NCBI GenBank assembly: GCA_023055355.1 | Contig: JALJCS010000051.1 | Coordinates: 2,418,001-2,482,000 of the forward strand | Direction: 5' to 3' | DNA: 64,000 bases | From: Agelaius tricolor | Lineage: Eukaryota; Chordata; Aves; Passeriformes; Icteridae | Shown here: positions 282-63,790 of the stretch, one piece after another | How positions within the stretch are numbered: the first letter of the stretch is position 1 | How the letters are laid out: each line of letters opens with the position of its first letter | The notes under the pieces: generated by a model | Told to the model about the DNA's origin: nothing | Seen by the model: only the letters and a program-made list of their open reading frames with translations | Databases searched by the model: none | Made by a program: the position numbers and the translations under genes

Positions 282-650
282 GGCTAGCAGATCTCTGTCA
301 CAAAGTCCTGGGGAGACAACAGGTCTACCCCGATTCCAGCGGGACACCAGGTCTACCCCGGATTCTCTGTGACACCAGGTCTAGCTCTCTCCCGTGGGAC
401 ATCAGGTCGTCCTCGCCCTGGCCGGACAACAGGTCTACCGCGGCCCTGGCCAGGACAACAGGTCGACCCTGGCTTCGCTGGGACATCAGGTCTACCCCAG
501 CTGCGTCCAGGGACAAGAGGTCTACCCAGCTCTGTAGGGACATCAGGTCTACCCCAGCTCCGTCCGGGGACAACAGGTCTACCCAGCTCTGTAGGGACAA
601 CTGGTCTACCTCAGCTCAATAGGGGCAACAGGTCTACCCTTGTTCCGTAG
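282..650 (+). repeat. Type example of class 1 block (369 bp, n=2 dimers, 13 monomers)
   Basis: Monomers in order after the marker octamer 282-289: a 32 bp diverged monomer (290-321); 28 bp GATTCCAGCGGG (322-349); 28 bp GGATTCTCTGTG (350-377); 27 bp CTCTCTCCCGTGGG (378-404); 27 bp GTCCTCGCCCTGG (405-431); 29 bp GCGGCCCTGGCC (432-460); 28 bp GGCTTCGCTGGG (461-488); two 57 bp dimers (489-545, 546-602); 28 bp CTCAGCTCAATAGG (603-630). A 28 bp monomer at 631-658 carries the next marker. The fixed part sums to 255 bp, so class 1 lengths are 255+57n: 312, 369, 426, 483 and 540 for n = 1 to 5. The 369 bp form is the commonest block (27 copies, counting one of 368 bp). Confidence 0.95.
546..602 (+). 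repeat. Representative 57 bp dimer, the unit of expansion
   Basis: This is a 30 bp monomer (546-575, core AGCTCCGTCCGGGG) followed by a 27 bp monomer (576-602, core AGCTCTGTAGGG). Adding or removing whole copies of this dimer accounts for all the 57 bp steps between block lengths. By block arithmetic there are about 424 such dimers in the complete blocks. Variants of the 30-mer core include CTCCGGCCAGGG, CTCCAGCCAGGG, CTGCGTCCAGGG and GAGTTCCGGCC. Variants of the 27-mer include CCTGCTCTGTAGGG and AGCTCTGTGGGG. The variants are tied to position within a block. Because 57 = 3 x 19, the dimer keeps reading frame and produces spurious 19-residue protein repeats. Confidence 0.95.
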
Positions 651-690
651 GGCTAGCAGATCTCTGCCACAAAGTCCTGGGGAGACAACA
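631..690 (+). repeat. 60 bp diverged block-boundary module (example of 134)
   Basis: Two diverged monomers (28+32 bp) carry the block marker GGCTAGCAGATC. The second begins GATCTCTG instead of GGTCTACC, includes CACAAAGTCCTGG and is the longest monomer. The module contains abutting GCTAGC (NheI-type) and AGATCT (BglII-type) hexamers. Allelic forms identify lineage. The left monomer ends CTTGTTCCG, CTTTTTCCG or CTTATATCG. The right one reads CTCTGTC, CTCTGCC or CGCTGCC, followed by GGGGAGAC, GGAAAGAC or GGGAACAC. A TAG in the left monomer (TTCCGTAGGG) closes a plus-strand reading frame at each block end. Confidence 0.93.
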
Positions 691-1163
691 GGTCTACCGC
701 GTTTTCATCTGGACACCAGGTCAACCCGGCTTCTCAGGGAGACCAGGTCTATCTCGCTCCAGCGGAACATCAGGTCGTCCTCGCCCTGGCGGGACAACAG
801 GTCTTCCCCGACCCTGGCCAGGGACAACAGGTCTACCCTGGCTTCGCTGGGACATCAGGTCTACCCCAGCTCCGTCCGGAGACAACAGGTCTACCCCGGC
901 CCTGGGCAGGACAACAGGTCTACCCTGGCTTCACTGGGACATCAGGTCTACCCGAGCTCCGGCCAGGGACAACAGGTCTACCCAGCTCTGTAGGGACATC
1001 AGGTCTACCCGAGCTCCGTCCGGGGACAACAAGTCTACCCAGCTCTGTAGGGACATCTGGTCTACCCCAGCTCCGTCCGGGGACAACAGGTCTACCCAGC
1101 TCTGTAGGGACAACTGGTCTACCTCAGCTCAATAGGGGCAACAGGTCTACCCTTTTTCCGTAG
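651..1163 (+). repeat. Type example of class 2 block (513 bp, n=3 dimers, with extra 87 bp triplet)
   Basis: The order matches class 1, but the head differs: GCGTTTTCATCTGG at 691-718, AACCCGGCTTCTCAGG at 719-745, CTCGCTCCAGCGG-type monomer at 746-772. An extra triplet of 30+29+28 bp monomers (858-944) sits before the dimers (945-1115). The fixed part is 342 bp, or 343 bp in heads with a 28 bp rather than 27 bp second monomer. Class 2 lengths are therefore 399/400, 457, 513, 570/571 and 627/628 for n = 1 to 5. There are 62 such blocks. Confidence 0.93.
858..944 (+). repeat. 87 bp monomer triplet that defines class 2 blocks (example)
   Basis: Three monomers with cores CTCCGTCCGGAG (30 bp), CCGGCCCTGGGCAG (29 bp) and GGCTTCACTGGG (28 bp). 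The last two are slightly altered copies of the CGGCCCTGGCC and GGCTTCGCTGGG monomers found upstream in every block. The triplet therefore looks like an old local segmental duplication that was fixed and then carried into all class 2 blocks. It is present in each class 2 block, including the shortest ones (399/400 bp). Confidence 0.85.
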
Positions 1164-2234
1164 GGCTAGCAGATCTCTGCCACAAAGTCCTGGGGAGACA
1201 ACAGGTCTACCGCGTTTTCATCTGGACACCAGGTCAACCCGGCTTCTCAGGGAGACCAGGTCTACCTCGCTCCAGCGGAACATCAGGTCGTCCTCGCCCT
1301 GGCGGGACAACAGGTCTTCCCCGACCCTGGCCAGGGACAACAGGTCTACCCGGGCTTCGCTGGGACATCAGGTCTACCCCAGCTCCGTCCGGAGACAACA
1401 GGTCTACCCCGGCCCTGGGCAGGACAACAGGTCTACCCTGGCTTCACTGGGACATCAGGTCTACCCGAGCTCCGGCCAGGGACAAGAGGTCTACCCAGCT
1501 CTGTAGGGACATCAGGTCTACCCCAGCTCCGGCCAGGGACAACAGGTCTACCCTGCTCTGTAGGGACATCGGGTCTACCCGAGTTCCGGCCAGGGACAAA
1601 AGGTCTACCCTGCTCTGTAGGGACATCAGGTCTACCCCAGCTCCGTCCGGGGACAACAGGTCTACCCAGCTCTGTGGGGACATCAGGTCTACCCCAGCTC
1701 CGGCCAGGGACAACAGGTCTACCCTGCTCTGTAGGGACAACTGGTCTACCTCAGCTCAATAGGGGCAACAGGTCTACCCTTGTTCCGTAGGGCTAGCAGA
1801 TCTCTGTCACAAAGTCCTGGAAAGACAACAGGTCTACCCCGATTCCAGCGGGACACCAGGTCTACCCCGGATTCTCTGTGACACCAGGTCTACCTCGCTC
1901 CAGCGGAACATCAGGTGGTCCTCGCCCTGGCGGGACAACAGGTCTTCCCCGACCCTGGCCAGGGACAACATGTCTACCCTGGCTTCGCTGGGACATCAGG
2001 TCTACCCCAGCTCCGTCCGGAGACAACAGGTCTACCCCGGCCCTGGGCAGGACAACAGGTCTACCCACGCTTCACTGGGACATCAGGTCTACCCGAGCTC
2101 CGGCCAGGGACAACAGGTCTACCCTGCTCTGTAGGGAGATCAGGTCTTCCCCAGCTCCGTCCGGGGACAACAGGTCTACCCAGCTCTGTAGGGACAACTG
2201 GTCTACCTCAACTCAATAGGGGCAACAGGTCTAC

Positions 2235-2244
2235 CCTTATATCG
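2235..2244 (+). other. AT-rich decamer CCTTATATCG at cassette ends (example of 20)
   Basis: It lies 13 to 4 bases before a block marker. The same decamer precedes the markers at 2248, 3557, 6489, 9421, 12609, 15455, 19297, 23683, 26501, 30887, 34729, 37547, 40478, 44864, 48706, 50839, 55225, 57131, 60973 and 63791. Every 399, 400 or 457 bp block ends with it and no other block does. It differs by one base from the SRF CArG consensus CC(A/T)6GG. Any binding is speculation; its value here is as a cassette-boundary marker. Confidence 0.85.
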
Positions 2245-2247
2245 TAG

Positions 2248-3556
2248 GGCTAGCAGATCTCTGTCACAAAGTCCTGGGGAGACAACAGGTCTACCCCGAT
2301 TCCAGCGGGACACCAGGTCTACCCCGGCTTCTCTGGGAGACCAGGTCTACCTCGCCCCAGCGGGACATCAGGTCGTCCCTGCCCTGGCGGGACAACAGGT
2401 CTACCCCGGCCCTGGCCAGGACAACAGGTCTACCCAGGCTTCGCTGGGACATCAGGTCTACCCCAGCACTGTCCGGGGACAACAGGTCTACCCAGCTCTG
2501 TAGGGACATCAGATCTACCTCAGCTCAATAGGGGCAACAGGTCTACCCTTGTTCCGTAGGGCTAGCAGATCTCTGTCACAAAGTCCTGGAAAGACAACAG
2601 GTCTACCCCGATTCCAGCGGGACACCAGGTCTACCCCGGATTCTCTGTGACACCAGGTCTAGCTCTCTCCCGTGGGACATCAGGTCGTCCTCGCCCTGGC
2701 CGGACAACAGGTCTACCGCGGCCCTGGCCAGGACAACAGGTCGACCCTGGCTTCGCTGGGACATCAGGTCTACCCCAGCTGCGTCCAGGGACAAGAGGTC
2801 TACCCAGCTCTGTAGGGACATCAGGTCTACCCCAGCTCCGGCCAGGGACAACAGGTCTACCCTGCTCTGTAGGGACATCGGGTCTACCCGAGTTCCGGCC
2901 AGGGACAAAAGGTCTACCCTGCTCTGTAGGGACATCAGGTCTACCCCAGCTCCGTCCGGGGACAACAGGTCTACCCAGCTCTGTGGGGACATCAGGTCTA
3001 CCCCAGCTCCGTCCGGGGACAACAGGTCTACCCTGCTCTGTAGGGACAACTGGTCTACCTCAACTCAATAGGGGCAACAGGTCTACCCTTGTTCCGTAGG
3101 GCTAGCAGATCTCTGTCACAAAGTCCTGGGGAGACAACAGGTCTACCCCGATTCCAGCGGGACACCAGGTCTACCCCGGATTCTCTGTGACACCAGGTCT
3201 ACCTCGCTCCAGCGGAACATCAGGTGGTCCTCGCCCTGGCGGGACAACAGGTCTTCCCCGACCCTGGCCAGGGACAACATGTCTACCCTGGCTTCGCTGG
3301 GACATCAGGTCTACCCCAGCTCCGTCCGGAGACAACAGGTCTACCCCGGCCCTGGGCAGGACAACAGGTCTACCCACGCTTCACTGGGACATCAGGTCTA
3401 CCCGAGCTCCGGCCAGGGACAACATGTCTACCCTGCTCTGTAGGGAGATCAGGTCTTCCCCAGCTCCGTCCGGGGACAACAGGTCTACCCAGCTCTGTAG
3501 GGACAACTGGTCTACCTCAACTCAATAGGGGCAACAGGTCTACCCTTATATCGTAG
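2248..3556 (+). repeat. Short cassette: blocks 312-540-457
   Basis: Blocks start at 2248, 2560 and 3100. The 540 block is of the beta form (GGGTCTACCCGAG rather than GGTTCTACCCGAG). It is followed directly by a 457 bp class 2 block instead of the usual 369 bp class 1 block. That block begins with the GGGGAGAC form normally seen in 369 blocks and then changes to a 457-type head, so it looks like a recombination junction. Confidence 0.9.
3100..3556 (+). repeat. Hybrid 457 bp block (369-type left end, E1-type right part)
   Basis: The left end has GGGGAGAC near 3127, which elsewhere begins the 369 block that follows a 540 block. The third head monomer onward (CTCGCTCCAGCGG near 3200) is of the E1 457 type. 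The switch lies between about 3130 and 3200. This is one of only two places where a 540 block is not followed by a 369-type block. Confidence 0.75.
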
Positions 3557-6488
3557 GGCTAGCAGATCTCTGTCACAAAGTCCTGGGGAGACAACAGGTC
3601 TACCCCGATTCCAGCGGGACACCAGGTCTACCCCGGCTTCTCTGGGAGACCAGGTCTACCTCGCCCCAGCGGGACATCAGGTCGTCCCTGCCCTGGCGGG
3701 ACAACAGGTCTACCCCGGCCCTGGCCAGGACAACAGGTCTACCCAGGCTTCGCTGGGACATCAGGTCTACCCCAGCACTGTCCGGGGACAACAGGTCTAC
3801 CCAGCTCTGTAGGGACATCAGGTCTACCCCAGCTCCAGCCAGGGACAACAGGTCTACCCAGCTCTGTAGGGACATCAGGTCTACCCCAGCTCCAGCCAGG
3901 GACAACAGGTCTACCCAGCTCTGTAGGGACATCAGGTCTACCTCAGCTCAATAGGGGCAACAGGTCTACCCTTGTTCCGTAGGGCTAGCAGATCTCTGTC
4001 ACAAAGTCCTGGAAAGACAACAGGTCTACCCCGATTCCAGCGGGACACCAGGTCTACCCCGGATTCTCTGTGACACCAGGTCTAGCTCTCTCCCGTGGGA
4101 CATCAGGTCGTCCTCGCCCTGGCCGGACAACAGGTCTACCGCGGCCCTGGCCAGGACAACAGGTCGACCCTGGCTTCGCTGGGACATCAGGTCTACCCCA
4201 GCTGCGTCCAGGGACAAGAGGTCTACCCAGCTCTGTAGGGACATCAGGTCTACCCCAGCTCCGGCCAGGGACAACAGGTCTACCCTGCTCTGTAGGGACA
4301 TCGGTTCTACCCGAGTTCCGGCCAGGGACAAAAGGTCTACCCTGCTCTGTAGGGACATCTGGTCTACCCCAGCTCCGTCCGGGGACAACAGGTCTACCCA
4401 GCTCTGTGGGGACATCAGGTCTACCCCAGCTCCGTCCGGGGACAACAGGTCTACCCTGCTCTGTAGGGACAACTGGTCTACCTCAACTCAATAGGGGCAA
4501 CAGGTCTACCCTTGTTCCGTAGGGCTAGCAGATCTCTGTCACAAAGTCCTGGGGAGACAACAGGTCTACCCCGATTCCAGCGGGACACCAGGTCTACCCC
4601 GGATTCTCTGTGACACCAGGTCTAGCTCTCTCCCGTGGGACATCAGGTCGTCCTCGCCCTGGCCGGACAACAGGTCTACCGCGGCCCTGGCCATGACAAC
4701 AGGTCGACCCTGGCTTCGCTGGGACATCAGGTCTACCCCAGCTGCGTCCAGGGACAAGAGGTCTACCCAGCTCTGTAGGGACATCAGGTCTACCCCAGCT
4801 CCGTCCGGGGACAACAGGTCTACCCAGCTCTGTAGGGACAACTGGTCTACCTCAGCTCAATAGGGGCAACAGGTCTACCCTTGTTCCGTAGGGCTAGCAG
4901 ATCTCTGCCACAAAGTCCTGGGGAGACAACAGGTCTACCGCGTTTTCATCTGGACACCAGGTCAACCCGGCTTCTCAGGGAGACCAGGTCTACCTCGCTC
5001 CAGCGGAACATCAGGTCGTCCTCGCCCTGGCGGGACAACAGGTCTTCCCCGACCCTGGCCAGGGACAACAGGTCTACCCGGGCTTCGCTGGGACATCAGG
5101 TCTACCCCAGCTCCGTCCGGAGACAACAGGTCTACCCCGGCCCTGGGCAGGACAACAGGTCTACCCTGGCTTCACTGGGACATCAGGTCTACCCGAGCTC
5201 CGGCCAGGGACAACAGGTCTACCCAGCTCTGTAGGGACATCAGGTCTACCCGAGCTCCGTCCGGGGACAACAAGTCTACCCAGCTCTGTAGGGACATCTG
5301 GTCTACCCCAGCTCCGTCCGGGGACAACAGGTCTACCCAGCTCTGTAGGGACAACTGGTCTACCTCAGCTCAATAGGGGCAACAGGTCTACCCTTTTTCC
5401 GTAGGGCTAGCAGATCTCTGCCACAAAGTCCTGGGGAGACAACAGGTCTACCGCGTTTTCATCTGGACACCAGGTCAACCCGGCTTCTCAGGGAGACCAG
5501 GTCTACCTCGCTCCAGCGGAACATCAGGTCGTCCTCGCCCTGGCGGGACAACAGGTCTTCCCCGACCCTGGCCAGGGACAACAGGTCTACCCGGGCTTCG
5601 CTGGGACATCAGGTCTACCCCAGCTCCGTCCGGAGACAACAGGTCTACCCCGGCCCTGGGCAGGACAACAGGTCTACCCTGGCTTCACTGGGACATCAGG
5701 TCTACCCCAGCTGCGTCCAGGGACAAGAGGTCTACCCAGCTCTGTAGGGACATCAGGTCTACCCCAGCTCCGGCCAGGGACAACAGGTCTACCCTGCTCT
5801 GTAGGGACATCGGGTCTACCCGAGTTCCGGCCAGGGACAAAAGGTCTACCCTGCTCTGTAGGGACATCAGGTCTACCCCAGCTCCGTCCGGGGACAACAG
5901 GTCTACCCAGCTCTGTGGGGACATCAGGTCTACCCCAGCTCCGGCCAGGGACAACAGGTCTACCCTGCTCTGTAGGGACAACTGGTCTACCTCAGCTCAA
6001 TAGGGGCAACAGGTCTACCCTTGTTCCGTAGGGCTAGCAGATCTCTGTCACAAAGTCCTGGAAAGACAACAGGTCTACCCCGATTCCAGCGGGACACCAG
6101 GTCTACCCCGGATTCTCTGTGACACCAGGTCTACCTCGCTCCAGCGGAACATCAGGTGGTCCTCGCCCTGGCGGGACAACAGGTCTTCCCCGACCCTGGC
6201 CAGGGACAACATGTCTACCCTGGCTTCGCTGGGACATCAGGTCTACCCCAGCTCCGTCCGGAGACAACAGGTCTACCCCGGCCCTGGGCAGGACAACAGG
6301 TCTACCCACGCTTCACTGGGACATCAGGTCTACCCGAGCTCCGGCCAGGGACAACATGTCTACCCTGCTCTGTAGGGAGATCAGGTCTTCCCCAGCTCCG
6401 TCCGGGGACAACAGGTCTACCCAGCTCTGTAGGGACAACTGGTCTACCTCAACTCAATAGGGGCAACAGGTCTACCCTTATATCGTAG
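3557..6488 (+). repeat. Z-long cassette (2932 bp): 426-540-369-513-627-457, alpha haplotype
   Basis: Blocks start at 3557, 3983, 4523, 4892, 5405 and 6032. The 426 block has two CTCCAGCCAGGG dimers. The 540 block has the alpha variant GGTTCTACC (T at 4305), and the following 369 block has CCATGAC (T at 4694). A further variant, GGGACATCTGG near 4355, is shared with the cassette at 37547 but with none of the neighbouring cassettes. Confidence 0.92.
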
Positions 6489-9420
6489 GGCTAGCAGATC
6501 TCTGTCACAAAGTCCTGGGGAGACAACAGGTCTACCCCGATTCCAGCGGGACACCAGGTCTACCCCGGCTTCTCTGGGAGACCAGGTCTACCTCGCCCCA
6601 GCGGGACATCAGGTCGTCCCTGCCCTGGCGGGACAACAGGTCTACCCCGGCCCTGGCCAGGACAACAGGTCTACCCAGGCTTCGCTGGGACATCAGGTCT
6701 ACCCCAGCACTGTCCGGGGACAACAGGTCTACCCAGCTCTGTAGGGACATCAGGTCTACCCCAGCTCCAGCCAGGGACAACAGGTCTACCCAGCTCTGTA
6801 GGGACATCAGGTCTACCCCAGCTCCAGCCAGGGACAACAGGTCTACCCAGCTCTGTAGGGACATCAGGTCTACCTCAGCTCAATAGGGGCAACAGGTCTA
6901 CCCTTGTTCCGTAGGGCTAGCAGATCTCTGTCACAAAGTCCTGGAAAGACAACAGGTCTACCCCGATTCCAGCGGGACACCAGGTCTACCCCGGATTCTC
7001 TGTGACACCAGGTCTAGCTCTCTCCCGTGGGACATCAGGTCGTCCTCGCCCTGGCCGGACAACAGGTCTACCGCGGCCCTGGCCAGGACAACAGGTCGAC
7101 CCTGGCTTCGCTGGGACATCAGGTCTACCCCAGCTGCGTCCAGGGACAAGAGGTCTACCCAGCTCTGTAGGGACATCAGGTCTACCCCAGCTCCGTCCGG
7201 GGACAACAGGTCTACCCTGCTCTGTAGGGACATCGGGTCTACCCGAGTTCCGGCCAGGGACAAAAGGTCTACCCTGCTCTGTAGGGACATCAGGTCTACC
7301 CCAGCTCCGTCCGGGGACAACAGGTCTACCCAGGTCTGTGGGGACATCAGGTCTACCCCAGCTCCGTCCGGGGACAACAGGTCTACCCTGCTCTGTAGGG
7401 ACAACTGGTCTACCTCAACTCAATAGGGGCAACAGGTCTACCCTTGTTCCGTAGGGCTAGCAGATCTCTGTCACAAAGTCCTGGGGAGACAACAGGTCTA
7501 CCCCGATTCCAGCGGGACACCAGGTCTACCCCGGATTCTCTGTGACACCAGGTCTAGCTCTCTCCCGTGGGACATCAGGTCGTCCTCGCCCTGGCCGGAC
7601 AACAGGTCTACCGCGGCCCTGGCCAGGACAACAGGTCGACCCTGGCTTCGCTGGGACATCAGGTCTACCCCAGCTGCGTCCAGGGACAAGAGGTCTACCC
7701 AGCTCTGTAGGGACATCAGGTCTACCCCAGCTCCGTCCGGGGACAACAGGTCTACCCAGCTCTGTAGGGACAACTGGTCTACCTCAGCTCAATAGGGGCA
7801 ACAGGTCTACCCTTGTTCCGTAGGGCTAGCAGATCTCTGCCACAAAGTCCTGGGGAGACAACAGGTCTACCGCGTTTTCATCTGGACACCAGGTCAACCC
7901 GGCTTCTCAGGGAGACCAGGTCTATCTCGCTCCAGCGGAACATCAGGTCGTCCTCGCCCTGGCGGGACAACAGGTCTTCCCCGACCCTGGCCAGGGACAA
8001 CAGGTCTACCCTGGCTTCGCTGGGACATCAGGTCTACCCCAGCTCCGTCCGGAGACAACAGGTCTACCCCGGCCCTGGGCAGGACAACAGGTCTACCCTG
8101 GCTTCACTGGGACATCAGGTCTACCCGAGCTCCGGCCAGGGACAACAGGTCTACCCAGCTCTGTAGGGACATCAGGTCTACCCGAGCTCCGTCCGGGGAC
8201 AACAAGTCTACCCAGCTCTGTAGGGACATCTGGTCTACCCCAGCTCCGTCCGGGGACAACAGGTCTACCCAGCTCTGTAGGGACAACTGGTCTACCTCAG
8301 CTCAATAGGGGCAACAGGTCTACCCTTTTTCCGTAGGGCTAGCAGATCTCTGCCACAAAGTCCTGGGGAGACAACAGGTCTACCGCGTTTTCATCTGGAC
8401 ACCAGGTCAACCCGGCTTCTCAGGGAGACCAGGTCTACCTCGCTCCAGCGGAACATCAGGTCGTCCTCGCCCTGGCGGGACAACAGGTCTTCCCCGACCC
8501 TGGCCAGGGACAACAGGTCTACCCGGGCTTCGCTGGGACATCAGGTCTACCCCAGCTCCGTCCGGAGACAACAGGTCTACCCCGGCCCTGGGCAGGACAA
8601 CAGGTCTACCCTGGCTTCACTGGGACATCAGGTCTACCCGAGCTCCGGCCAGGGACAAGAGGTCTACCCAGCTCTGTAGGGACATCAGGTCTACCCCAGC
8701 TCCGGCCAGGGACAACAGGTCTACCCTGCTCTGTAGGGACATCGGGTCTACCCGAGTTCCGGCCAGGGACAAAAGGTCTACCCTGCTCTGTAGGGACATC
8801 AGGTCTACCCCAGCTCCGTCCGGGGACAACAGGTCTACCCAGCTCTGTGGGGACATCAGGTCTACCCCAGCTCCGGCCAGGGACAACAGGTCTACCCTGC
8901 TCTGTAGGGACAACTGGTCTACCTCAGCTCAATAGGGGCAACAGGTCTACCCTTGTTCCGTAGGGCTAGCAGATCTCTGTCACAAAGTCCTGGAAAGACA
9001 ACAGGTCTACCCCGATTCCAGCGGGACACCAGGTCTACCCCGGATTCTCTGTGACACCAGGTCTACCTCGCTCCAGCGGAACATCAGGTGGTCCTCGCCC
9101 TGGCGGGACAACAGGTCTTCCCCGACCCTGGCCAGGGACAACATGTCTACCCTGGCTTCGCTGGGACATCAGGTCTACCCCAGCTCCGTCCGGAGACAAC
9201 AGGTCTACCCCGGCCCTGGGCAGGACAACAGGTCTACCCACGCTTCACTGGGACATCAGGTCTACCCGAGCTCCGGCCAGGGACAACATGTCTACCCTGC
9301 TCTGTAGGGAGATCAGGTCTTCCCCAGCTCCGTCCGGGGACAACAGGTCTACCCAGCTCTGTAGGGACAACTGGTCTACCTCAACTCAATAGGGGCAACA
9401 GGTCTACCCTTATATCGTAG
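6489..9420 (+). repeat. Z-long cassette (2932 bp): 426-540-369-513-627-457, beta haplotype
   Basis: Blocks start at 6489, 6915, 7455, 7824, 8337 and 8964. Length and block order are the same as the preceding cassette, but it carries beta-type variants (GGGTCTACCCGAG, CCAGGAC). From about 7174 onward it matches 1-2247 in rare variants. It is therefore not a simple tandem copy of 3557-6488. Confidence 0.92.
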
Positions 9421-10272
9421 GGCTAGCAGATCTCTGTCACAAAGTCCTGGGGAGACAACAGGTCTACCCCGATTCCAGCGGGACACCAGGTCTACCCCGG
9501 CTTCTCTGGGAGACCAGGTCTACCTCGCCCCAGCGGGACATCAGGTCGTCCCTGCCCTGGCGGGACAACAGGTCTACCCCGGCCCTGGCCAGGACAACAG
9601 GTCTACCCAGGCTTCGCTGGGACATCAGGTCTACCCCAGCACTGTCCGGGGACAACAGGTCTACCCAGCTCTGTAGGGACATCAGATCTACCTCAGCTCA
9701 ATAGGGGCAACAGGTCTACCCTTGTTCCGTAGGGCTAGCAGATCTCTGTCACAAAGTCCTGGAAAGACAACAGGTCTACCCCGATTCCAGCGGGACACCA
9801 GGTCTACCCCGGATTCTCTGTGACACCAGGTCTAGCTCTCTCCCGTGGGACATCAGGTCGTCCTCGCCCTGGCCGGACAACAGGTCTACCGCGGCCCTGG
9901 CCAGGACAACAGGTCGACCCTGGCTTCGCTGGGACATCAGGTCTACCCCAGCTGCGTCCAGGGACAAGAGGTCTACCCAGCTCTGTAGGGACATCAGGTC
10001 TACCCCAGCTCCGGCCAGGGACAACAGGTCTACCCTGCTCTGTAGGGACATCGGGTCTACCCGAGTTCCGGCCAGGGACAAAAGGTCTACCCTGCTCTGT
10101 AGGGACATCAGGTCTACCCCAGCTCCGTCCGGGGACAACAGGTCTACCCAGCTCTGTGGGGACATCAGGTCTACCCCAGCTCCGTCCGGGGACAACAGGT
10201 CTACCCTGCTCTGTAGGGACAACTGGTCTACCTCAACTCAATAGGGGCAACAGGTCTACCCTTGTTCCGTAG
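7174..10272 (+). repeat. 3.1 kb repeat of window positions 1-3099 at offset 7173
   Basis: Block order and rare variants match 1-3099: CAGGTCTGTGG (161/7334), TATCTCGCTCC in the 513 block, CGAGCTCCGGCC with ACAAGAGG in the 627 block, and CAGATCTACC at the end of the 312 block. Beyond 3100 and 10273 the block orders differ (457 versus 369). Confidence 0.88.
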
Positions 10273-47800: not shown

Positions 47801-48705
47801 GGTCTACCCGGGCTTCGCTGGGACATCAGGTCTACCCCAGCTCCGTCCGGAGACAACAGGTCTACCCCGGCCCTGGGCAGGACAACAGGTCTACCCTGGC
47901 TTCACTGGGACATCAGGTCTACCCCAGCTGCGTCCAGGGACAAGAGGTCTACCCAGCTCTGTAGGGACATCAGGTCTACCCCAGCTCCAGCCAGGGACAA
48001 CAGGTCTACCCTGCTCTGTAGGGATATCGGGTCTACCCGAGTTCCGGCCAGGGACAAAAGGTCTACCCTGCTCTGTAGGGACATCAGGTCTACCCCAGCT
48101 CCGTCCGGGGACAACAGGTCTACCCAGCTCTGTGGGGACATCAGGTCTACCCCAGCTCCGGCCAGGGACAACAGGTCTACCCTGCTCTGTAGGGACAACT
48201 GGTCTACCTCAGCTCAATAGGGGCAACAGGTCTACCCTTGTTCCGTAGGGCTAGCAGATCTCTGTCACAAAGTCCTGGGAACACAACAGGTCTACCCCGA
48301 TTCCAGCGGGACACCAGGTCTACCCCGGATTCTCTGTGACACCAGGTCTAGCTCTCTCCCGTGGGACATCAGGTCGTCCTCGCCCTGGCGGGACAACAGG
48401 TCTTCCCCGACCCTGGCCAGGGACAACATGTCTACCCTGGCTTCGCTGGGACATCAGGTCTACCCCAGCTCCGTCCGGAGACAACAGGTCTACCCCGGCC
48501 CTGGGCAGGACAACAGGTCTACCCACGCTTCACTGGGACATCAGGTCTACCCGAGCTCCGGCCAGGGACAACAGGTCTACCCTGCTCTGTAGGGAGATCA
48601 GGTCTTCCCCAGCTCCGTCCGGGGACAACAGGTCTACCCAGCTCTGTAGGGACAACTGGTCTACCTCAACTCAATAGGGGCAACAGGTCTACCCTTATAT
48701 CGTAG
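44864..48705 (+). repeat. Y cassette (3842 bp), copy 3
   Basis: Blocks start at 44864, 45290, 45773, 46313, 46682, 47252, 47621 and 48249. It shares the GGGACCACAGG (C at 45154), CTCTGTTGGG, CTCGACCTGG and ACCACGGCCC variants with copy 2 at an offset of 13,977. A private GGCCAGAGAC change lies near 45575. Confidence 0.93.
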
Positions 48706-53800: not shown

Positions 53801-55224
53801 GAACACAACAGGTCTACCCCGATTCCAGCGGGACACCAGGTCTACCCCGGATTCTCTGTGACACCAGGTCTAGCTCTCTCCCGTGGGACATCAGGTCGTC
53901 CTCGCCCTGGCCGGACAACAGGTCTACCCCGGCCCTGGCCAGGACAACAGGTCGACCCTGGCTTCGCTGGGACATCAGGTCTACCCCAGCTGCGTCCAGG
54001 GACAAGAGGTCTACCCAGCTCTGTAGGGACATCAGGTCTACCCCAGCTCCGTCCGGGGACAACAGGTCTACCCAGCTCTGTAGGGACAACTGGTCTACCT
54101 CAGCTCAATAGGGGCAACAGGTCTACCCTTGTTCCGTAGGGCTAGCAGATCGCTGCCACAAAGTCCTGGGGAGACAACAGGTCTACCGCGTTTTCATCTG
54201 GACACCAGGTCTACCCCGGCTTCTCAGGGAGACCAGGTCTACCTCGCTCCAGCGGAACATCAGGTCGTCCTCGCCCTGGCGGGACAACAGGTCTTCCCCG
54301 ACCCTGGCCAGGGACAACAGGTCTACCCGGGCTTCGCTGGGACATCAGGTCTACCCCAGCTCCGTCCGGAGACAACAGGTCTACCCCGGCCCTGGGCAGG
54401 ACAACAGGTCGACCCTGGCTTCGCTGGGACATCAGGTCTACCCCAGCTGCGTCCAGGGACAAGAGGTCTACCCAGCTCTGTAGGGACATCAGGTCTACCC
54501 CAGCTCCGGCCAGGGACAACAGGTCTACCCTGCTCTGTAGGGATATCGGGTCTACCCGAGTTCCGGCCAGGGACAAAAGGTCTACCCTGCTCTGTAGGGA
54601 CATCAGGTCTACCCCAGCTCCGTCCGGGGACAACAGGTCTACCCAGCTCTGTGGGGACATCAGGTCTACCCCAGCTCCGTCCGGGGACAACAGGTCTACC
54701 CTGCTCTGTAGGGACAACTGGTCTACCTCAGCTCAATCGGGGCAACAGGTCTACCCTTGTTCCGTAGGGCTAGCAGATCTCTGTCACAAAGTCCTGGGAA
54801 CACAACAGGTCTACCCCGATTCCAGCGGGACACCAGGTCTACCCCGGATTCTCTGTGACACCAGGTCTAGCTCTCTCCCGTGGGACATCAGGTCGTCCTC
54901 GCCCTGGCGGGACAACAGGTCTTCCCCGACCCTGGCCAGGGACAACATGTCTACCCTGGCTTCGCTGGGACATCAGGTCTACCCCAGCTCCGTCCGGAGA
55001 CAACAGGTCTACCCCGGCCCTGGGCAGGACAACAGGTCTACCCACGCTTCACTGGGACATCAGGTCTACCCGAGCTCCGGCCAGGGACAACAGGTCTACC
55101 CTGCTCTGTAGGGAGATCAGGTCTTCCCCAGCTCCGTCCGGGGACAACAGGTCTACCCAGCTCTGTAGGGACAACTGGTCTACCTCAACTCAATAGGGGC
55201 AACAGGTCTACCCTTATATCGTAG
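50839..55224 (+). repeat. X cassette (4386 bp), copy 4
   Basis: Blocks start at 50839, 51151, 51691, 52060, 52573, 53200, 53771, 54140 and 54768. It matches copy 3 at an offset of 10,361 bp, including the converted monomer in the 628 block and the CTCAATCGGGG ending. Confidence 0.93.
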
Positions 55225-57130
55225 GGCTAGCAGATCTCTGTCACAAAGTCCTGGGGAGACAACAGGTCTACCCCGATTCCAGCGGGACACCAGGTCTACC
55301 CCGGCTTCTCTGGGAGACCAGGTCTACCTCGCCCCAGCGGGACATCAGGTCGTCCCTGCCCTGGCGGGACAACAGGTCTACCCCGGCCCTGGCCAGGACA
55401 ACAGGTCTACCCAGGCTTCGCTGGGACATCAGGTCTACCCCAGCACTGTCCGGGGACAACAGGTCTACCCAGCTCTGTAGGGACATCAGGTCTACCCCAG
55501 CTCCAGCCAGGGACCACAGGTCTACCCAGCTCTGTTGGGACATCAGGTCTACCCCAGCTCCAGCCAGGGACAACAGGTCTACCCAGCTCTGTAGGGACAT
55601 CAGGTCTACCTCAGCTCAATAGGGGCAACAGGTCTACCCTTGTTCCGTAGGGCTAGCAGATCTCTGTCACAAAGTCCTGGAAAGACAACAGGTCTACCCC
55701 GATTCCAGCGGGACTCCAGGTCTACCCCGGCTTCTCTGGAAGACCAGGTCTACCTCGCCCCAGCGGGACATCAGGTCGTCCCTGCCCTGGCGGGACAACA
55801 GGTCTACCCCGGCCCTGGCCAGGACAACAGGTCTACCCAGGCTTCGCTGGGACATCAGGTCTACCCCAGCTGCGTCCAGGGACAAGAGGTCTACCCAGCT
55901 CTGTAGGGACATCAGGTCTACCCCAGCTCCGGCCAGGGACAACAGGTCTACCCAGCTCTGTAGGGACATCAGGTCTACCCCAGCTCCGTCCGGGGACAAC
56001 AGGTCTACCCAGCTCTGTGGGGACATCAGGTCTACCCCAGCTCCGTCCGGGGACAACAGATCTACCCAGCTCTGTAGGGACATCAGGTCTACCTCAGCTC
56101 AATAGGGGCAACAGGTCTACCCTTGTTCCGTAGGGCTAGCAGATCTCTGTCACAAAGTCCTGGAAAGACAACAGGTCTACCCCGATTCCAGCGGGACACC
56201 AGGTCTACCCCGGATTCTCTGTGACACCAGGTCTAGCTCTCTCCCGTGGGACATCAGGTCGTCCTCGACCTGGCCGGACAACAGGTCTACCACGGCCCTG
56301 GCCAGGACAACAGGTCGACCCTGGCTTCGCTGGGACATCAGGTCTACCCCAGCTGCGTCCAGGGACAAGAGGTCTACCCAGCTCTGTAGGGACATCAGGT
56401 CTACCCCAGCTCCGGCCAGGGACAACAGGTCTACCCTGCTCTGTAGGGACATCGGGTCTACCCGAGTTCCGGCCAGGGACAAAAGGTCTACCCTGCTCTG
56501 TAGGGACATCAGGTCTACCCCAGCTCCGTCCGGGGACAACAGGTCTACCCAGCTCTGTGGGGACATCAGGTCTACCCCAGCTCCGTCCGGGGACAACAGG
56601 TCTACCCTGCTCTGTAGGGACAACTGGTCTACCTCAACTCAATAGGGGCAACAGGTCTACCCTTGTTCCGTAGGGCTAGCAGATCTCTGTCACAAAGTCC
56701 TGGGGAGACAACAGGTCTACCCCGATTCCAGCGGGACACCAGGTCTACCCCGGATTCTCTGTGACACCAGGTCTAGCTCTCTCCCGTGGGACATCAGGTC
56801 GTCCTCGCCCTGGCGGGACAACAGGTCTTCCCCGACCCTGGCCAGGGACAACATGTCTACCCTGGCTTCGCTGGGACATCAGGTCTACCCCAGCTCCGTC
56901 CGGAGACAACAGGTCTACCCCGGCCCTGGGCAGGACAACAGGTCTACCCACGCTTCACTGGGACATCAGGTCTACCCGAGCTCCGGCCAGGGACAACAGG
57001 TCTACCCTGCTCTGTAGGGAGATCAGGTCTTCCCCAGCTCCGTCCGGGGACAACAGGTCTACCCAGCTCTGTAGGGACAACTGGTCTACCTCAACTCAAT
57101 AGGGGCAACAGGTCTACCCTTATATCGTAG
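55225..57130 (+). repeat. Truncated Y cassette (1906 bp): 426-483-540-457
   Basis: Blocks start at 55225, 55651, 56134 and 56674. The 540 block is followed by a 457 block that begins like a 369 block (GGGGAGAC near 56703) and continues as an E2-type 457 block (CTGGCGGGACA near 56815). The normal 369-570-369-628 run is missing. Confidence 0.92.
56674..57130 (+). repeat. Hybrid 457 bp block at the 1906 bp duplication junction
   Basis: It starts GGGGAGAC like the 369 block that normally follows a 540 block. From CTGGCGGGACA (about 56815) it is E2-type. The 369 and E2 blocks are alike between these points (both have GGATTCTCTGTG and CTCTCTCCCGTGGG), so the exchange lies between about 56710 and 56815. 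Confidence 0.8.
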
Positions 57131-60100
57131 GGCTAGCAGATCTCTGTCACAAAGTCCTGGGGAGACAACAGGTCTACCCCGATTCCAGCGGGACACCAGG
57201 TCTACCCCGGCTTCTCTGGGAGACCAGGTCTACCTCGCCCCAGCGGGACATCAGGTCGTCCCTGCCCTGGCGGGACAACAGGTCTACCCCGGCCCTGGCC
57301 AGGACAACAGGTCTACCCAGGCTTCGCTGGGACATCAGGTCTACCCCAGCACTGTCCGGGGACAACAGGTCTACCCAGCTCTGTAGGGACATCAGGTCTA
57401 CCCCAGCTCCAGCCAGGGACCACAGGTCTACCCAGCTCTGTTGGGACATCAGGTCTACCCCAGCTCCAGCCAGGGACAACAGGTCTACCCAGCTCTGTAG
57501 GGACATCAGGTCTACCTCAGCTCAATAGGGGCAACAGGTCTACCCTTGTTCCGTAGGGCTAGCAGATCTCTGTCACAAAGTCCTGGAAAGACAACAGGTC
57601 TACCCCGATTCCAGCGGGACTCCAGGTCTACCCCGGCTTCTCTGGAAGACCAGGTCTACCTCGCCCCAGCGGGACATCAGGTCGTCCCTGCCCTGGCGGG
57701 ACAACAGGTCTACCCCGGCCCTGGCCAGGACAACAGGTCTACCCAGGCTTCGCTGGGACATCAGGTCTACCCCAGCTGCGTCCAGGGACAAGAGGTCTAC
57801 CCAGCTCTGTAGGGACATCAGGTCTACCCCAGCTCCGGCCAGGGACAACAGGTCTACCCAGCTCTGTAGGGACATCAGGTCTACCCCAGCTCCGTCCGGG
57901 GACAACAGGTCTACCCAGCTCTGTGGGGACATCAGGTCTACCCCAGCTCCGTCCGGGGACAACAGATCTACCCAGCTCTGTAGGGACATCAGGTCTACCT
58001 CAGCTCAATAGGGGCAACAGGTCTACCCTTGTTCCGTAGGGCTAGCAGATCTCTGTCACAAAGTCCTGGAAAGACAACAGGTCTACCCCGATTCCAGCGG
58101 GACACCAGGTCTACCCCGGATTCTCTGTGACACCAGGTCTAGCTCTCTCCCGTGGGACATCAGGTCGTCCTCGACCTGGCCGGACAACAGGTCTACCACG
58201 GCCCTGGCCAGGACAACAGGTCGACCCTGGCTTCGCTGGGACATCAGGTCTACCCCAGCTGCGTCCAGGGACAAGAGGTCTACCCAGCTCTGTAGGGACA
58301 TCAGGTCTACCCCAGCTCCGGCCAGGGACAACAGGTCTACCCTGCTCTGTAGGGACATCGGGTCTACCCGAGTTCCGGCCAGGGACAAAAGGTCTACCCT
58401 GCTCTGTAGGGACATCAGGTCTACCCCAGCTCCGTCCGGGGACAACAGGTCTACCCAGCTCTGTGGGGACATCAGGTCTACCCCAGCTCCGTCCGGGGAC
58501 AACAGGTCTACCCTGCTCTGTAGGGACAACTGGTCTACCTCAACTCAATAGGGGCAACAGGTCTACCCTTGTTCCGTAGGGCTAGCAGATCTCTGTCACA
58601 AAGTCCTGGGGAGACAACAGGTCTACCCCGATTCCAGCGGGACACCAGGTCTACCCCGGATTCTCTGTGACACCAGGTCTAGCTCTCTCCCGTGGGACAT
58701 CAGGTCGTCCTCGCCCTGGCCGGACAACAGGTCTACCGCGGCCCTGGCCAGGACAACAGGTCGACCCTGGCTTCGCTGGGACATCAGGTCTACCCCAGCT
58801 GCGTCCAGGGACAAGAGGTCTACCCAGCTCTGTAGGGACATCAGGTCTACCCCAGCTCCGTCCGGGGACAACAGGTCTACCCAGCTCTGTAGGGACAACT
58901 GGTCTACCTCAGCTCAATAGGGGCAACAGGTCTACCCTTGTTCCGTAGGGCTAGCAGATCTCTGCCACAAAGTCCTGGGGAGACAACAGGTCTACCGCGT
59001 TTTCATCTGGACACCAGGTCAACCCGGCTTCTCAGGGAGACCAGGTCTACCTCGCTCCAGCGGAACATCAGGTCGTCCTCGCCCTGGCGGGACAACAGGT
59101 CTTCCCCGACCCTGGCCAGGGACAACAGGTCTACCCGGGCTTCGCTGGGACATCAGGTCTACCCCAGCTCCGTCCGGAGACAACAGGTCTACCCCGGCCC
59201 TGGGCAGGACAACAGGTCTACCCTGGCTTCACTGGGACATCAGGTCTACCCGAGCTCCGGCCAGGGACAACAGGTCTACCCAGCTCTGTAGGGACATCAG
59301 GTCTACCCGAGCTCCGTCCGGGGACAACAAGTCTACCCAGCTCTGTAGGGACATCTGGTCTACCCCAGCTCCGGCCAGGGACAACAGGTCTACCCAGCTC
59401 TGTAGGGACATCAGGTCTACCCCAGCTCCGGCCAGGGACAACAGGTCTACCCTGCTCTGTAGGGACAACTGGTCTACCTCAGCTCAATAGGGGCAACAGG
59501 TCTACCCTTGTTCCGTAGGGCTAGCAGATCTCTGTCACAAAGTCCTGGGAACACAACAGGTCTACCCCGATTCCAGCGGGACACCAGGTCTACCCCGGAT
59601 TCTCTGTGACACCAGGTCTAGCTCTCTCCCGTGGGACATCAGGTCGTCCTCGCCCTGGCCGGACAACAGGTCTACCCCGGCCCTGGCCAGGACAACAGGT
59701 CGACCCTGGCTTCGCTGGGACATCAGGTCTACCCCAGCTGCGTCCAGGGACAAGAGGTCTACCCAGCTCTGTAGGGACATCAGGTCTACCCCAGCTCCGT
59801 CCGGGGACAACAGGTCTACCCAGCTCTGTAGGGACAACTGGTCTACCTCAGCTCAATAGGGGCAACAGGTCTACCCTTGTTCCGTAGGGCTAGCAGATCG
59901 CTGCCACAAAGTCCTGGGGAGACAACAGGTCTACCGCGTTTTCATCTGGACACCAGGTCTACCCCGGCTTCTCAGGGAGACCAGGTCTACCTCGCTCCAG
60001 CGGAACATCAGGTCGTCCTCGCCCTGGCGGGACAACAGGTCTTCCCCGACCCTGGCCAGGGACAACAGGTCTACCCGGGCTTCGCTGGGACATCAGGTCT

Positions 60101-60972
60101 ACCCCAGCTCCGTCCGGAGACAACAGGTCTACCCCGGCCCTGGGCAGGACAACAGGTCTACCCTGGCTTCACTGGGACATCAGGTCTACCCCAGCTGCGT
60201 CCAGGGACAAGAGGTCTACCCAGCTCTGTAGGGACATCAGGTCTACCCCAGCTCCAGCCAGGGACAACAGGTCTACCCTGCTCTGTAGGGATATCGGGTC
60301 TACCCGAGTTCCGGCCAGGGACAAAAGGTCTACCCTGCTCTGTAGGGACATCAGGTCTACCCCAGCTCCGTCCGGGGACAACAGGTCTACCCAGCTCTGT
60401 GGGGACATCAGGTCTACCCCAGCTCCGGCCAGGGACAACAGGTCTACCCTGCTCTGTAGGGACAACTGGTCTACCTCAGCTCAATAGGGGCAACAGGTCT
60501 ACCCTTGTTCCGTAGGGCTAGCAGATCTCTGTCACAAAGTCCTGGGAACACAACAGGTCTACCCCGATTCCAGCGGGACACCAGGTCTACCCCGGATTCT
60601 CTGTGACACCAGGTCTAGCTCTCTCCCGTGGGACATCAGGTCGTCCTCGCCCTGGCGGGACAACAGGTCTTCCCCGACCCTGGCCAGGGACAACATGTCT
60701 ACCCTGGCTTCGCTGGGACATCAGGTCTACCCCAGCTCCGTCCGGAGACAACAGGTCTACCCCGGCCCTGGGCAGGACAACAGGTCTACCCACGCTTCAC
60801 TGGGACATCAGGTCTACCCGAGCTCCGGCCAGGGACAACAGGTCTACCCTGCTCTGTAGGGAGATCAGGTCTTCCCCAGCTCCGTCCGGGGACAACAGGT
60901 CTACCCAGCTCTGTAGGGACAACTGGTCTACCTCAACTCAATAGGGGCAACAGGTCTACCCTTATATCGTAG
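57131..60972 (+). repeat. Y cassette (3842 bp), copy 4
   Basis: Blocks start at 57131, 57557, 58040, 58580, 58949, 59519, 59888 and 60516. The first three blocks repeat those at 55225, 55651 and 56134 at an offset of 1906 bp, including GGGACCACAGG (C at 57421 versus 55515) and the ACCACGGCCC variant. Confidence 0.93.
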
Positions 60973-63790
60973 GGCTAGCAGATCTCTGTCACAAAGTCCT
61001 GGGGAGACAACAGGTCTACCCCGATTCCAGCGGGACACCAGGTCTACCCCGGCTTCTCTGGGAGACCAGGTCTACCTCGCCCCAGCGGGACATCAGGTCG
61101 TCCCTGCCCTGGCGGGACAACAGGTCTACCCCGGCCCTGGCCAGGACAACAGGTCTACCCAGGCTTCGCTGGGACATCAGGTCTACCCCAGCACTGTCCG
61201 GGGACAACAGGTCTACCCAGCTCTGTAGGGACATCAGATCTACCTCAGCTCAATAGGGGCAACAGGTCTACCCTTGTTCCGTAGGGCTAGCAGATCTCTG
61301 TCACAAAGTCCTGGAAAGACAACAGGTCTACCCCGATTCCAGCGGGACACCAGGTCTACCCCGGATTCTCTGTGACACCAGGTCTAGCTCTCTCCCGTGG
61401 GACATCAGGTCGTCCTCGCCCTGGCCGGACAACAGGTCTACCGCGGCCCTGGCCAGGACAACAGGTCGACCCTGGCTTCGCTGGGACATCAGGTCTACCC
61501 CAGCTGCGTCCAGGGACAAGAGGTCTACCCAGCTCTGTAGGGACATCAGGTCTACCCCAGCTCCGGCCAGGGACAACAGGTCTACCCTGCTCTGTAGGGA
61601 CATCGGTTCTACCCGAGTTCCGGCCAGGGACAAAAGGTCTACCCTGCTCTGTAGGGACATCAGGTCTACCCCAGCTCCGTCCGGGGACAACAGGTCTACC
61701 CAGCTCTGTGGGGACATCAGGTCTACCCCAGCTCCGTCCGGGGACAACAGGTCTACCCTGCTCTGTAGGGACAACTGGTCTACCTCAACTCAATAGGGGC
61801 AACAGGTCTACCCTTGTTCCGTAGGGCTAGCAGATCTCTGTCACAAAGTCCTGGGGAGACAACAGGTCTACCCCGATTCCAGCGGGACACCAGGTCTACC
61901 CCGGATTCTCTGTGACACCAGGTCTAGCTCTCTCCCGTGGGACATCAGGTCGTCCTCGCCCTGGCCGGACAACAGGTCTACCGCGGCCCTGGCCATGACA
62001 ACAGGTCGACCCTGGCTTCGCTGGGACATCAGGTCTACCCCAGCTGCGTCCAGGGACAAGAGGTCTACCCAGCTCTGTAGGGACATCAGGTCTACCCCAG
62101 CTCCGTCCGGGGACAACAGGTCTACCCAGCTCTGTAGGGACAACTGGTCTACCTCAGCTCAATAGGGGCAACAGGTCTACCCTTGTTCCGTAGGGCTAGC
62201 AGATCTCTGCCACAAAGTCCTGGGGAGACAACAGGTCTACCGCGTTTTCATCTGGACACCAGGTCAACCCGGCTTCTCAGGGAGACCAGGTCTACCTCGC
62301 TCCAGCGGAACATCAGGTCGTCCTCGCCCTGGCGGGACAACAGGTCTTCCCCGACCCTGGCCAGGGACAACAGGTCTACCCGGGCTTCGCTGGGACATCA
62401 GGTCTACCCCAGCTCCGTCCGGAGACAACAGGTCTACCCCGGCCCTGGGCAGGACAACAGGTCTACCCTGGCTTCACTGGGACATCAGGTCTACCCGAGC
62501 TCCGGCCAGGGACAACAGGTCTACCCAGCTCTGTAGGGACATCAGGTCTACCCGAGCTCCGTCCGGGGACAACAAGTCTACCCAGCTCTGTAGGGACATC
62601 TGGTCTACCCCAGCTCCGTCCGGGGACAACAGGTCTACCCAGCTCTGTAGGGACAACTGGTCTACCTCAGCTCAATAGGGGCAACAGGTCTACCCTTTTT
62701 CCGTAGGGCTAGCAGATCTCTGCCACAAAGTCCTGGGGAGACAACAGGTCTACCGCGTTTTCATCTGGACACCAGGTCAACCCGGCTTCTCAGGGAGACC
62801 AGGTCTACCTCGCTCCAGCGGAACATCAGGTCGTCCTCGCCCTGGCGGGACAACAGGTCTTCCCCGACCCTGGCCAGGGACAACAGGTCTACCCGGGCTT
62901 CGCTGGGACATCAGGTCTACCCCAGCTCCGTCCGGAGACAACAGGTCTACCCCGGCCCTGGGCAGGACAACAGGTCTACCCTGGCTTCACTGGGACATCA
63001 GGTCTACCCCAGCTGCGTCCAGGGACAAGAGGTCTACCCAGCTCTGTAGGGACATCAGGTCTACCCCAGCTCCGGCCAGGGACAACAGGTCTACCCTGCT
63101 CTGTAGGGATATCGGGTCTACCCGAGTTCCGGCCAGGGACAAAAGGTCTACCCTGCTCTGTAGGGACATCAGGTCTACCCCAGCTCCGTCCGGGGACAAC
63201 AGGTCTACCCAGCTCTGTGGGGACATCAGGTCTACCCCAGCTCCGTCCGGGGACAACAGGTCTACCCTGCTCTGTAGGGACAACTGGTCTACCTCAGCTC
63301 AATCGGGGCAACAGGTCTACCCTTGTTCCGTAGGGCTAGCAGATCTCTGTCACAAAGTCCTGGGAACACAACAGGTCTACCCCGATTCCAGCGGGACACC
63401 AGGTCTACCCCGGATTCTCTGTGACACCAGGTCTAGCTCTCTCCCGTGGGACATCAGGTCGTCCTCGCCCTGGCGGGACAACAGGTCTTCCCCGACCCTG
63501 GCCAGGGACAACATGTCTACCCTGGCTTCGCTGGGACATCAGGTCTACCCCAGCTCCGTCCGGAGACAACAGGTCTACCCCGGCCCTGGGCAGGACAACA
63601 GGTCTACCCACGCTTCACTGGGACATCAGGTCTACCCGAGCTCCGGCCAGGGACAACAGGTCTACCCTGCTCTGTAGGGAGATCAGGTCTTCCCCAGCTC
63701 CGTCCGGGGACAACAGGTCTACCCAGCTCTGTAGGGACAACTGGTCTACCTCAACTCAATAGGGGCAACAGGTCTACCCTTATATCGTAG
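60973..63790 (+). repeat. Z-length cassette (2818 bp) with a hybrid 627 block
   Basis: Blocks start at 60973, 61285, 61825, 62194, 62707 and 63334. The length equals Z, but the 627 block has a 627-type left end and a 628-type right end (GGATATCGGG near 63108, CTCAATCGGGG near 63300). The terminal 457 block is the E2 form that normally follows a 628 block. It appears derived from an X cassette by deletion. Confidence 0.92.
62707..63333 (+). repeat. Hybrid 627/628 block
   Basis: The left end is 627-type (AGATCTCTGCC, GTCAACCCGG at 62776-62785). The right part is 628-type (GGATATCGGG near 63108, AATCGGGG near 63302). Fusing these blocks in an X cassette would remove the 571 and 369 blocks plus one block equivalent, 1568 bp in total. 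That gives the observed cassette length of 2818 bp. Confidence 0.82.

What the first reader, a model, noticed from the sequence alone, without database searches (positions are those of the whole stretch)
282..63790. Two-parameter length grammar explains all 133 blocks
Block lengths fall on two ladders: 255+57n and 342/343+57n, with n = 1-5 in each. Only one block departs from this, and by one base. The 57 bp dimer is the sole variable-number element, while the surrounding monomers are invariant in number. No block has n = 0 or n > 5. So variation arises almost entirely by exchange in dimer register, with little replication slippage at other periods and almost no small indels.
Basis: seen in the sequence. 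Interest (0 to 1): 0.75.

Follow-up and report, generated by a model that had tools for sequence, protein, structure and literature searches.

The report
Layered satellite beside ribosomal RNA genes
The window is the inside of a very large, layered tandem repeat that lies next to the ribosomal RNA genes and shares its building block with their spacer; its tidy block lengths are real, but they are mostly copies of about a dozen inherited block types rather than 133 independent results.

Summary
The ladder is real: 132 of 133 blocks fit one monomer grammar with n=1-5 dimers; the exception is one base short. The explanation is only partly right. The 133 blocks are 40 sequences in 14 classes, copied in ordered super-units; length entropy is 3.11 bits, but 0.11 given both neighbours. 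Recent structural change in the window is mostly gain and loss of whole blocks. Two modules vary in number: the 57-bp dimer and an 87-bp trimer. Among 422 blocks just outside the window 415 fit the grammar, but n=7 occurs, the trimer can move, and on contig C60 n reaches 12. Near-identical blocks of different length differ by multiples of 57 bp (28 of 40 pairs), by steps that include 87 bp (8) or by 1 bp (4). On contigs C51, C60 and C91 the array is followed by rDNA units, and spacer 30-mers are up to 93% identical to the x monomer. Best reading: a spacer-related, nucleolus-organiser-flanking higher-order satellite, probably of a bird.

The parts
4..63996 (+). Continuous run of 27-32 bp monomers (family core GACAACAGGTCTACCC); the window begins and ends inside the array
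   Evidence: 2247 monomers from position 4 on; searches show the array going on at both sides
288..63796 (+). 133 complete blocks, cut at the 32-bp head monomer h1; grammar h1 m2-m7 [t1 t2 t3] (x y)n e1 e2, n=1-5
   Evidence: 132 of 133 fit
38519..38886 (+). Block 81 (class M, 368 bp), the one departure: a 27-bp m2 (C4 to C3)
   Evidence: a homopolymer, so a base-calling error is not excluded
16910..32341 (+). Super-unit U1, 15,432 bp, AHAIDEFABCLAIDEFABCDEFABCLAIDGKF
32342..46318 (+). Super-unit U2, 13,977 bp, AHAIDEFABCDGFMBCDEFABCLAIDGKF
46319..58585 (+). Super-unit U3, 12,267 bp, AHAIDEFABNEFABCLAIDGKFDGKF
21664..22234 (+). Block 46 (class L, one of 4 identical copies): exact hybrid of a D left part and an H right part
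   Evidence: 0 mismatches under two parents
50446..50844 (+). Block 106 (class N, 399 bp): B or C left part, D right part, one dimer fewer than D; sits between B and E
   Evidence: 5 mismatches under two parents, so more than one step
12215..12614 (+). Block 26 (class J, one of 2 identical copies): D less 57 bp
   Evidence: 2 mismatches
13524..14063 (+). Block 29: F left part with H right part, before the A type that otherwise follows H or L
   Evidence: 0 mismatches under two parents, 4 under F alone
3106..3562 (+). Block 7: D block after F, with the A-type head h1a
56680..57136 (+). Block 119: D block after F, with the A-type head h1a
62713..63339 (+). Block 132: C left part with I right part
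   Evidence: 0 mismatches under two parents, 7 under C alone

Best explanation
The window is the interior of a nucleolus-organiser-flanking higher-order satellite whose 27-32 bp monomers belong to the same family as the repeats of the rDNA intergenic spacer (IGS). Shown: on C51 the array begins beside unique DNA at about 2.25 Mb, is still present at 2.81 Mb, and rDNA units are present from 2.848 Mb; C60 and C91 show HOR blocks followed by rDNA in the same orientation. Shown: a block is a frame of nine monomers plus modules (57-bp dimer, 87-bp trimer), and blocks fall into classes that are copied in multi-block units. Inferred: unequal homologous exchange (crossover or template switching) acts where local similarity is high: heads with heads (whole-block gain and loss, most of the recent structural change seen), dimer with dimer (57k steps), m6-m7-x with t2-t3-x (87-bp steps); one-monomer shifts are rare because x and y are only about 74% alike. 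Inferred: the array grew from spacer repeats; the reverse direction is not excluded.
For: Grammar and its wider test: 132 of 133 in the window, 415 of 422 just outside. Copying of classes: 40 sequences in 14 classes; length entropy 3.11 bits against 0.11 given both neighbours. Block-register change: 5, 16 and 13 unaligned blocks between super-units that differ by 20 of 13,183, 4 of 9,962 and 2 of 9,962 bases in aligned same-length blocks. Hybrids: L, 7, 29, 119 and 132 fit two parents with 0 mismatches; both D blocks that follow F carry the A head h1a, none of the other 17 D and J blocks does. Step sizes 57k 28, with 87 8, 1 bp 4 of 40. Slot identities x-x .88, y-y .90, m6-t2 .92, m7-t3 .91, t1-x .87, x-y .74. 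rDNA: 5.8S on C51:2,876,889 and four on C60; the 756-bp stretch before the N-run recurs at 2 places on C51, 17 on C60 spaced 18.3-22.7 kb, 5 long ones on C64 and 2 on C91, 7,644-7,672 bp before 5.8S in the 6 cases compared. IGS 30-mers up to 93% identical to x. A junction beside the rDNA has an 83-bp, 86.7% copy at the left edge of the array; core score 63 against a maximum of 33 in 200 shuffles.
Against: The transition from HOR blocks to rDNA was not read (C51 2.810-2.848, C60 1.206-1.550 Mb, C91 3-631 kb). A 5,000-N run lies between the 5' rDNA stretch and 5.8S on C51. Two-parent fits are imperfect for N (5 mismatches), K (14), H (2-3), J (2). 5 of 9 G blocks carry two identical neighbouring dimers, which suits slippage or local duplication. 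At looser thresholds 1-bp steps grow (24 of 118 pairs at 4 mismatches or fewer). IGS-type monomers on C64 and C39 have the opposite orientation to their rDNA, so the family has more than one place in the spacer.
Confidence: 0.8

Rival explanations
1. One reading: the blocks vary almost only by exchange in dimer register, everything else being fixed.
For: 57k is the commonest step (28 of 40); J differs from D by 57 bp and E from G by 114 bp with 2 and 1 mismatches.
Against: Trimer steps (8 of 40) and displaced trimers; whole-block differences between super-units; lengths inherited with class.
Confidence: 0.15
2. Replication slippage or local tandem duplication, not exchange between blocks, makes the 57-bp steps.
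For: 5 of 9 G blocks have identical neighbouring dimers; J and E can be written as simple deletions.
Against: In 12 class representatives 0 of 24 neighbouring dimer pairs are identical, while 20 of 136 (from the 5' side) and 16 of 136 (from the 3' side) same-position pairs across classes are; hybrids join parts of different blocks.
Confidence: 0.25
3. The spacer captured satellite monomers: the satellite came first and part of it was taken into the IGS.
For: The family is on several contigs and in two orientations relative to rDNA.
Against: Each of the C39 clusters listed (5 of 5) lies near a degenerate 5.8S copy, and the left edge of the array holds a copy of a junction otherwise found beside the rDNA; neither fixes the direction.
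Confidence: 0.25
4. It is the centromere-forming satellite of this chromosome.
For: HOR layering and near-identity of units resemble centromeric arrays.
Confidence: 0.15
5. Much of the block order is an assembly product (collapsed or duplicated units).
For: Near-identical units; contig lengths of 2,877,500, 1,955,000 and 652,500 and a 5,000-N run suggest scaffold editing.
Against: The same frame with different n on C51, C60 and C91.
Confidence: 0.1

Closest known systems
[quoted passage not shown]
   Same: Spacer repeats present in bulk on a chromosome, in or next to an rDNA site
   Different: There the rRNA genes are largely lost; here rDNA units follow the array, and the array has several layers of higher-order repeat
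Cascading alpha-satellite HORs of human chromosome 15 (PMC11050224, outline and abstract)
   Same: Repeat units of differing monomer number, in which one monomer type occurs more than once
   Different: 171-bp AT-richer centromeric monomers in that case (size recalled and); here 27-32 bp, 60% GC, beside rDNA
Quartic HOR of hornerin (PMC9584774 passages)
   Same: Short unit organised in several nested levels (39 bp, 0.35, 0.7, 1.4 kb)
   Different: A protein-coding exon array; here non-coding, larger, with variable-length blocks
Elena and Valerie repeats of the chicken IGS (PMC6815422, outline, passages and first part of Results)
   Same: GC-rich repeats of stable length in the rDNA spacer, Elena in tetrads of 372-373 bp
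   Different: Units of 72-95 bp inside each spacer; sequences not compared here; no array outside the rDNA in the parts read

Membership tests
Higher-order-repeat satellite | Multi-monomer units nearly identical to each other while monomers within a unit are divergent | tested here: met
   Blocks within a class differ by at most 9 bases; distinct monomers are 72% identical on average in 800 sampled pairs
Higher-order-repeat satellite | Tandem, head-to-tail, one orientation over long distance | tested here: met
   4518 boundary matches forward, 0 reverse in the genome
Cascading HOR | A unit contains the same monomer type more than once and unit copies differ in monomer number | tested here: met
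   x and y recur n times; 11-22 monomers per block
rDNA-spacer-related satellite | Sequence kinship with repeats inside the rDNA spacer | tested here: met
   Promoter-side 30-mers: mean best identity to x .87, maximum .93; junction copy
rDNA-spacer-related satellite | Derived from the spacer (direction of descent) | tested here: inconclusive
   Kinship shown, direction not; no relative's genome could be searched (one search says none is held)
NOR-flanking array | Directly next to an rDNA array | tested here: inconclusive
   Same contig and same order on C51, C60 and C91, but the junction stretches were not read and scaffolding gaps are possible
Centromeric satellite | CENP-A or kinetochore occupancy | not testable with these tools
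   No chromatin data
Pol I terminator (Sal box) repeats | Match to the mouse motif that begins AGGTCGACCAG (PMC11358750 passage) | tested here: inconclusive
   First nine bases exact in 48 of 2247 monomers, one base off (AGGTCTACC) in 1522; chicken IGS paper found no Sal-box-like motif and zebrafish Ttf1 sites lack the consensus

The most novel reading that the evidence does not exclude
Arrays of several hundred kilobases beside each nucleolus organiser are made of terminator-like or replication-fork-barrier-like spacer monomers; barrier-provoked breaks both homogenise the array by unequal exchange and buffer the chromosome against the rDNA, so that block order is a readable record of exchange next to the nucleolus organiser.
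Probability: 0.08. Interest if true: 0.8.

Novelty: new member of a known kind. Interest (0 to 1): 0.5.

Why it matters
Sequence flanking rDNA arrays is seldom assembled. This array shows several layers of higher-order repeat next to rDNA, built from spacer-type monomers, with a nearly closed grammar in which single exchange products can be read and their parents named. It is also a caution: a clean length ladder in one window can reflect copying of a few classes rather than many events. The similarity rule (steps at offsets 87-92% alike, rarely at the 74% one-monomer offset) makes a testable link between sequence similarity and the register of exchange.

Tried and rejected
Coding: the 10 ORFs of 200 aa or more are all 212 aa and lie over class I blocks; no protein search was made on the satellite. 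Rfam on the window: no match at gathering score. Plasmid records: no match; one 17-base pattern in viral contigs: none; one 18-base pattern in prokaryote genomes: 2 places, taken as chance. Hairpins in monomers: only mildly above mononucleotide shuffles (mean longest stem 3.84 against 3.66, sd 0.08, the best of 100 shuffles reaching 3.84; mean folding energy -6.05 against -4.84, sd 0.27), not pursued. Block order beyond first-order transitions: mixed (longest repeated order 26 against a maximum of 22 in 100 simulations, but LZ phrase count 26 against mean 28.9 and minimum 24 in 300). The 1/C values count out-of-register sites where parents differ in length and are not used as probabilities. 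For C39 the distance limit was set after seeing the distances, both position lists were capped, and the contig length assumed (5.6 Mb) is below the true 5.80 Mb. Step-size pairs are not independent events, since haplotypes are copies.
Full report
OBSERVATION. A dynamic-programming cut of the window gave 2247 monomers, 81 distinct, of 27-32 bp and mean 28.47. All blocks but one follow h1 32, m2 28, m3 28 or 27, m4 27, m5 27, m6 29 or 30, m7 28, an optional trimer t1 30, t2 29, t3 28, then n dimers x 30 + y 27, then e1 28, e2 28. The two ladders differ by the trimer (87), the longer m6 (+1) and, in 29 of the 62 trimer blocks, the shorter m3 (-1), which explains 342 and 343.

PSEUDOREPLICATION. 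The 133 blocks are 40 distinct sequences in 14 same-length classes, within which at most 9 bases differ. There are 23 transition types between classes. The entropy of (n, trimer) is 3.11 bits; it falls to 0.72 given the previous class (1000 shuffles: mean 2.49, minimum 2.29) and to 0.11 given both neighbours. Length is therefore mostly inherited. With 12 independent classes, absence of n=0 and n>5 has a probability of about 0.18 under a Poisson of mean 3. Super-units of 12.3-15.4 kb recur; exact repeats reach 5,207 bp among the shifts tried. In the 260 kb described below, length entropy is 3.51 bits and 0.55 given both neighbours' lengths.

RECENT CHANGE. Between three super-units the aligned same-length blocks differ by 20 of 13,183, 4 of 9,962 and 2 of 9,962 bases, while 5, 16 and 13 blocks stay unaligned. 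One block of new dimer number (N) and one 1-bp change (M) are seen. So whole-block gain and loss is the commonest recent structural change in this sample of three. Hybrids sit at odd junctions: L is an exact D/H hybrid; block 29 is F/H; block 132 is C/I; blocks 7 and 119, the only D blocks after F, carry the A head h1a, which none of the other 17 D and J blocks has. Other classes fit two parents less well: E 1, H 2-3, J 2, N 5, K 14 mismatches.

WIDER ARRAY. When the whole-genome tool answered, the window proved to be C51:2,418,001-2,482,000 of an unnamed 1.16-Gb assembly in 214 contigs. A boundary pattern with up to 3 mismatches occurs 4518 times forward and 0 times reverse; the 100 places listed lie on C51 and C60, and C91 also has blocks. 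I decomposed 260 kb of C51 including the window: 556 blocks, 190 haplotypes, 548 fit the grammar; outside the window 415 of 422. By length alone 19 of 556 are off the ladders, 18 of them outside the window; 14 of the 19 (370 and 541 bp) are the 30-bp m6 form without trimer. Among the 548, n is 1 (46), 2 (213), 3 (69), 4 (75), 5 (140) and 7 (5), and 208 have the trimer. Trimer monomers lie inside the dimer run in 5 of 556 blocks, once with two trimers, and one further block has t1-t2 without t3. On C60 two samples (10 and 6 kb) gave blocks without trimer and with n from 1 to 12, some with a 27-bp x; of 5 complete blocks in 3 kb of C91 two have odd monomer lengths. Samples at C51:2.65 and 2.80 Mb keep the frame, apart from one neighbouring pair of blocks of 485 and 739 bp, whose sum equals 483+741.

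STEP SIZES. For each of 190 haplotypes I took the nearest haplotype of another length under one gap. At 1 mismatch or fewer there are 40 pairs: 57 (26), 114 (1), 171 (1), 87 (6), 201 (1), 258 (1), 1 bp (4). At 4 mismatches or fewer there are 118: 79 multiples of 57, 15 that include 87, 24 of 1 bp. Among all pairs 31% of gaps are multiples of 57. Slot identities offer a reason: x-x .88, y-y .90, m6-t2 .92, m7-t3 .91, t1-x .87, but x-y .74. That similarity sets the register is an inference. Slippage cannot be excluded for simple 57-bp cases: in 12 class representatives 0 of 24 neighbouring dimer pairs are identical while 20 of 136 same-position pairs are, but 5 of 9 G blocks do carry two identical neighbouring dimers.

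RIBOSOMAL CONTEXT. The right end of C51 holds 5.8S rRNA (144.7 bits), after 52 monomers of 30 bp, about 800 bp of other sequence and a 5,000-N run that may be a gap or a withheld stretch. The 756 bp before the N-run recur at C51:2,848,211 and 2,869,240, at 17 places on C60 (4 of them partial) spaced 18.3-22.7 kb, at 5 long and 1 short place on C64 (minus strand) and at 2 on C91, and lie 7,644-7,672 bp before 5.8S in the 6 cases compared. I take this stretch for the 5' part of the rDNA unit. The 5.8S search scored 40 of 17,547 candidates, so its list is partial. On C51, C60 and C91 the HOR blocks come before the rDNA in the same orientation; the transition itself was not read. The left edges of the C51 and C60 arrays share unique flank, 516 of 525 columns alike, and a junction beside the rDNA has a copy at the left edge of the C51 array and no comparable match in the 260 kb. 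IGS 30-mers are up to 93% identical to x. Related 25-28 bp monomers lie on C64, and the 5 clusters listed on C39 lie 4.9-10.3 kb on one side of minus-strand 5.8S copies. So the monomer family is part of the rDNA spacer, and the HOR array is its NOR-flanking relative. That the organism is a bird is an inference from genome size and a long GC-rich stretch before 5.8S (1.9 kb to the N-run; chicken ITS1 is 2,530 bp in the abstract listed); no call names it.

LITERATURE. Seen: outline and abstract of PMC11050224; passages of PMC9584774, PMC11062924, PMC11447458, PMC11358750, PMC8800533, PMC8794474; outline, passages and the first part of Results of PMC6815422. Searches listed no paper that I recognised as describing this satellite; the library holds open-licence papers only, so this is weak evidence of absence. 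PMC11062924 argues that simple unequal crossover does not account for the spread of new HORs in human centromeres, which may hold here too.

VERDICT. A correct and precise observation, over-read in its explanation. The thing itself is best filed as a new member of a known kind: a spacer-related, layered satellite next to rDNA.

Noticed in passing
C39 of the window's genome (5,798,228 bp), e.g. L039: 32 of the 40 scored 5.8S matches lie on this contig, at 112-141 bits and on both strands (18 minus), as if degenerate rDNA copies were scattered along it.
   Followed up: partly
window, m7a monomers (46 of 133 blocks): m7a holds AGGTCGACC, the first nine bases of the mouse Sal box given in PMC11358750; the commonest monomer core differs by one base.
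   Followed up: partly
L035:1670-2495: A reverse-oriented copy of the monomer core (GGGTAGACCTGTTGTC) lies just after the 30-mer run, near the presumed rDNA promoter; seen by eye.
   Followed up: no
L031 and L032, left array edges on C60 and C51: The two arrays share at least 520 bp of unique left flank at about 98% identity but differ in n range and trimer content; alleles or two chromosomes is open.
   Followed up: partly
contigs C51, C60, C91: Lengths 2,877,500, 1,955,000 and 652,500 are multiples of 2,500, as after binned scaffold editing.
   Followed up: no
L040 (C64:1743501-1744900): A second spacer-type array of 25-28 bp monomers with its own 456-bp higher-order period, on the strand opposite to the rDNA of C64.
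   Followed up: no
L032:2540-2812: An open stretch in the left flank of the array gives a sub-threshold Pfam match to PF06369 (14.4 bits, cut-off 25).
   Followed up: no
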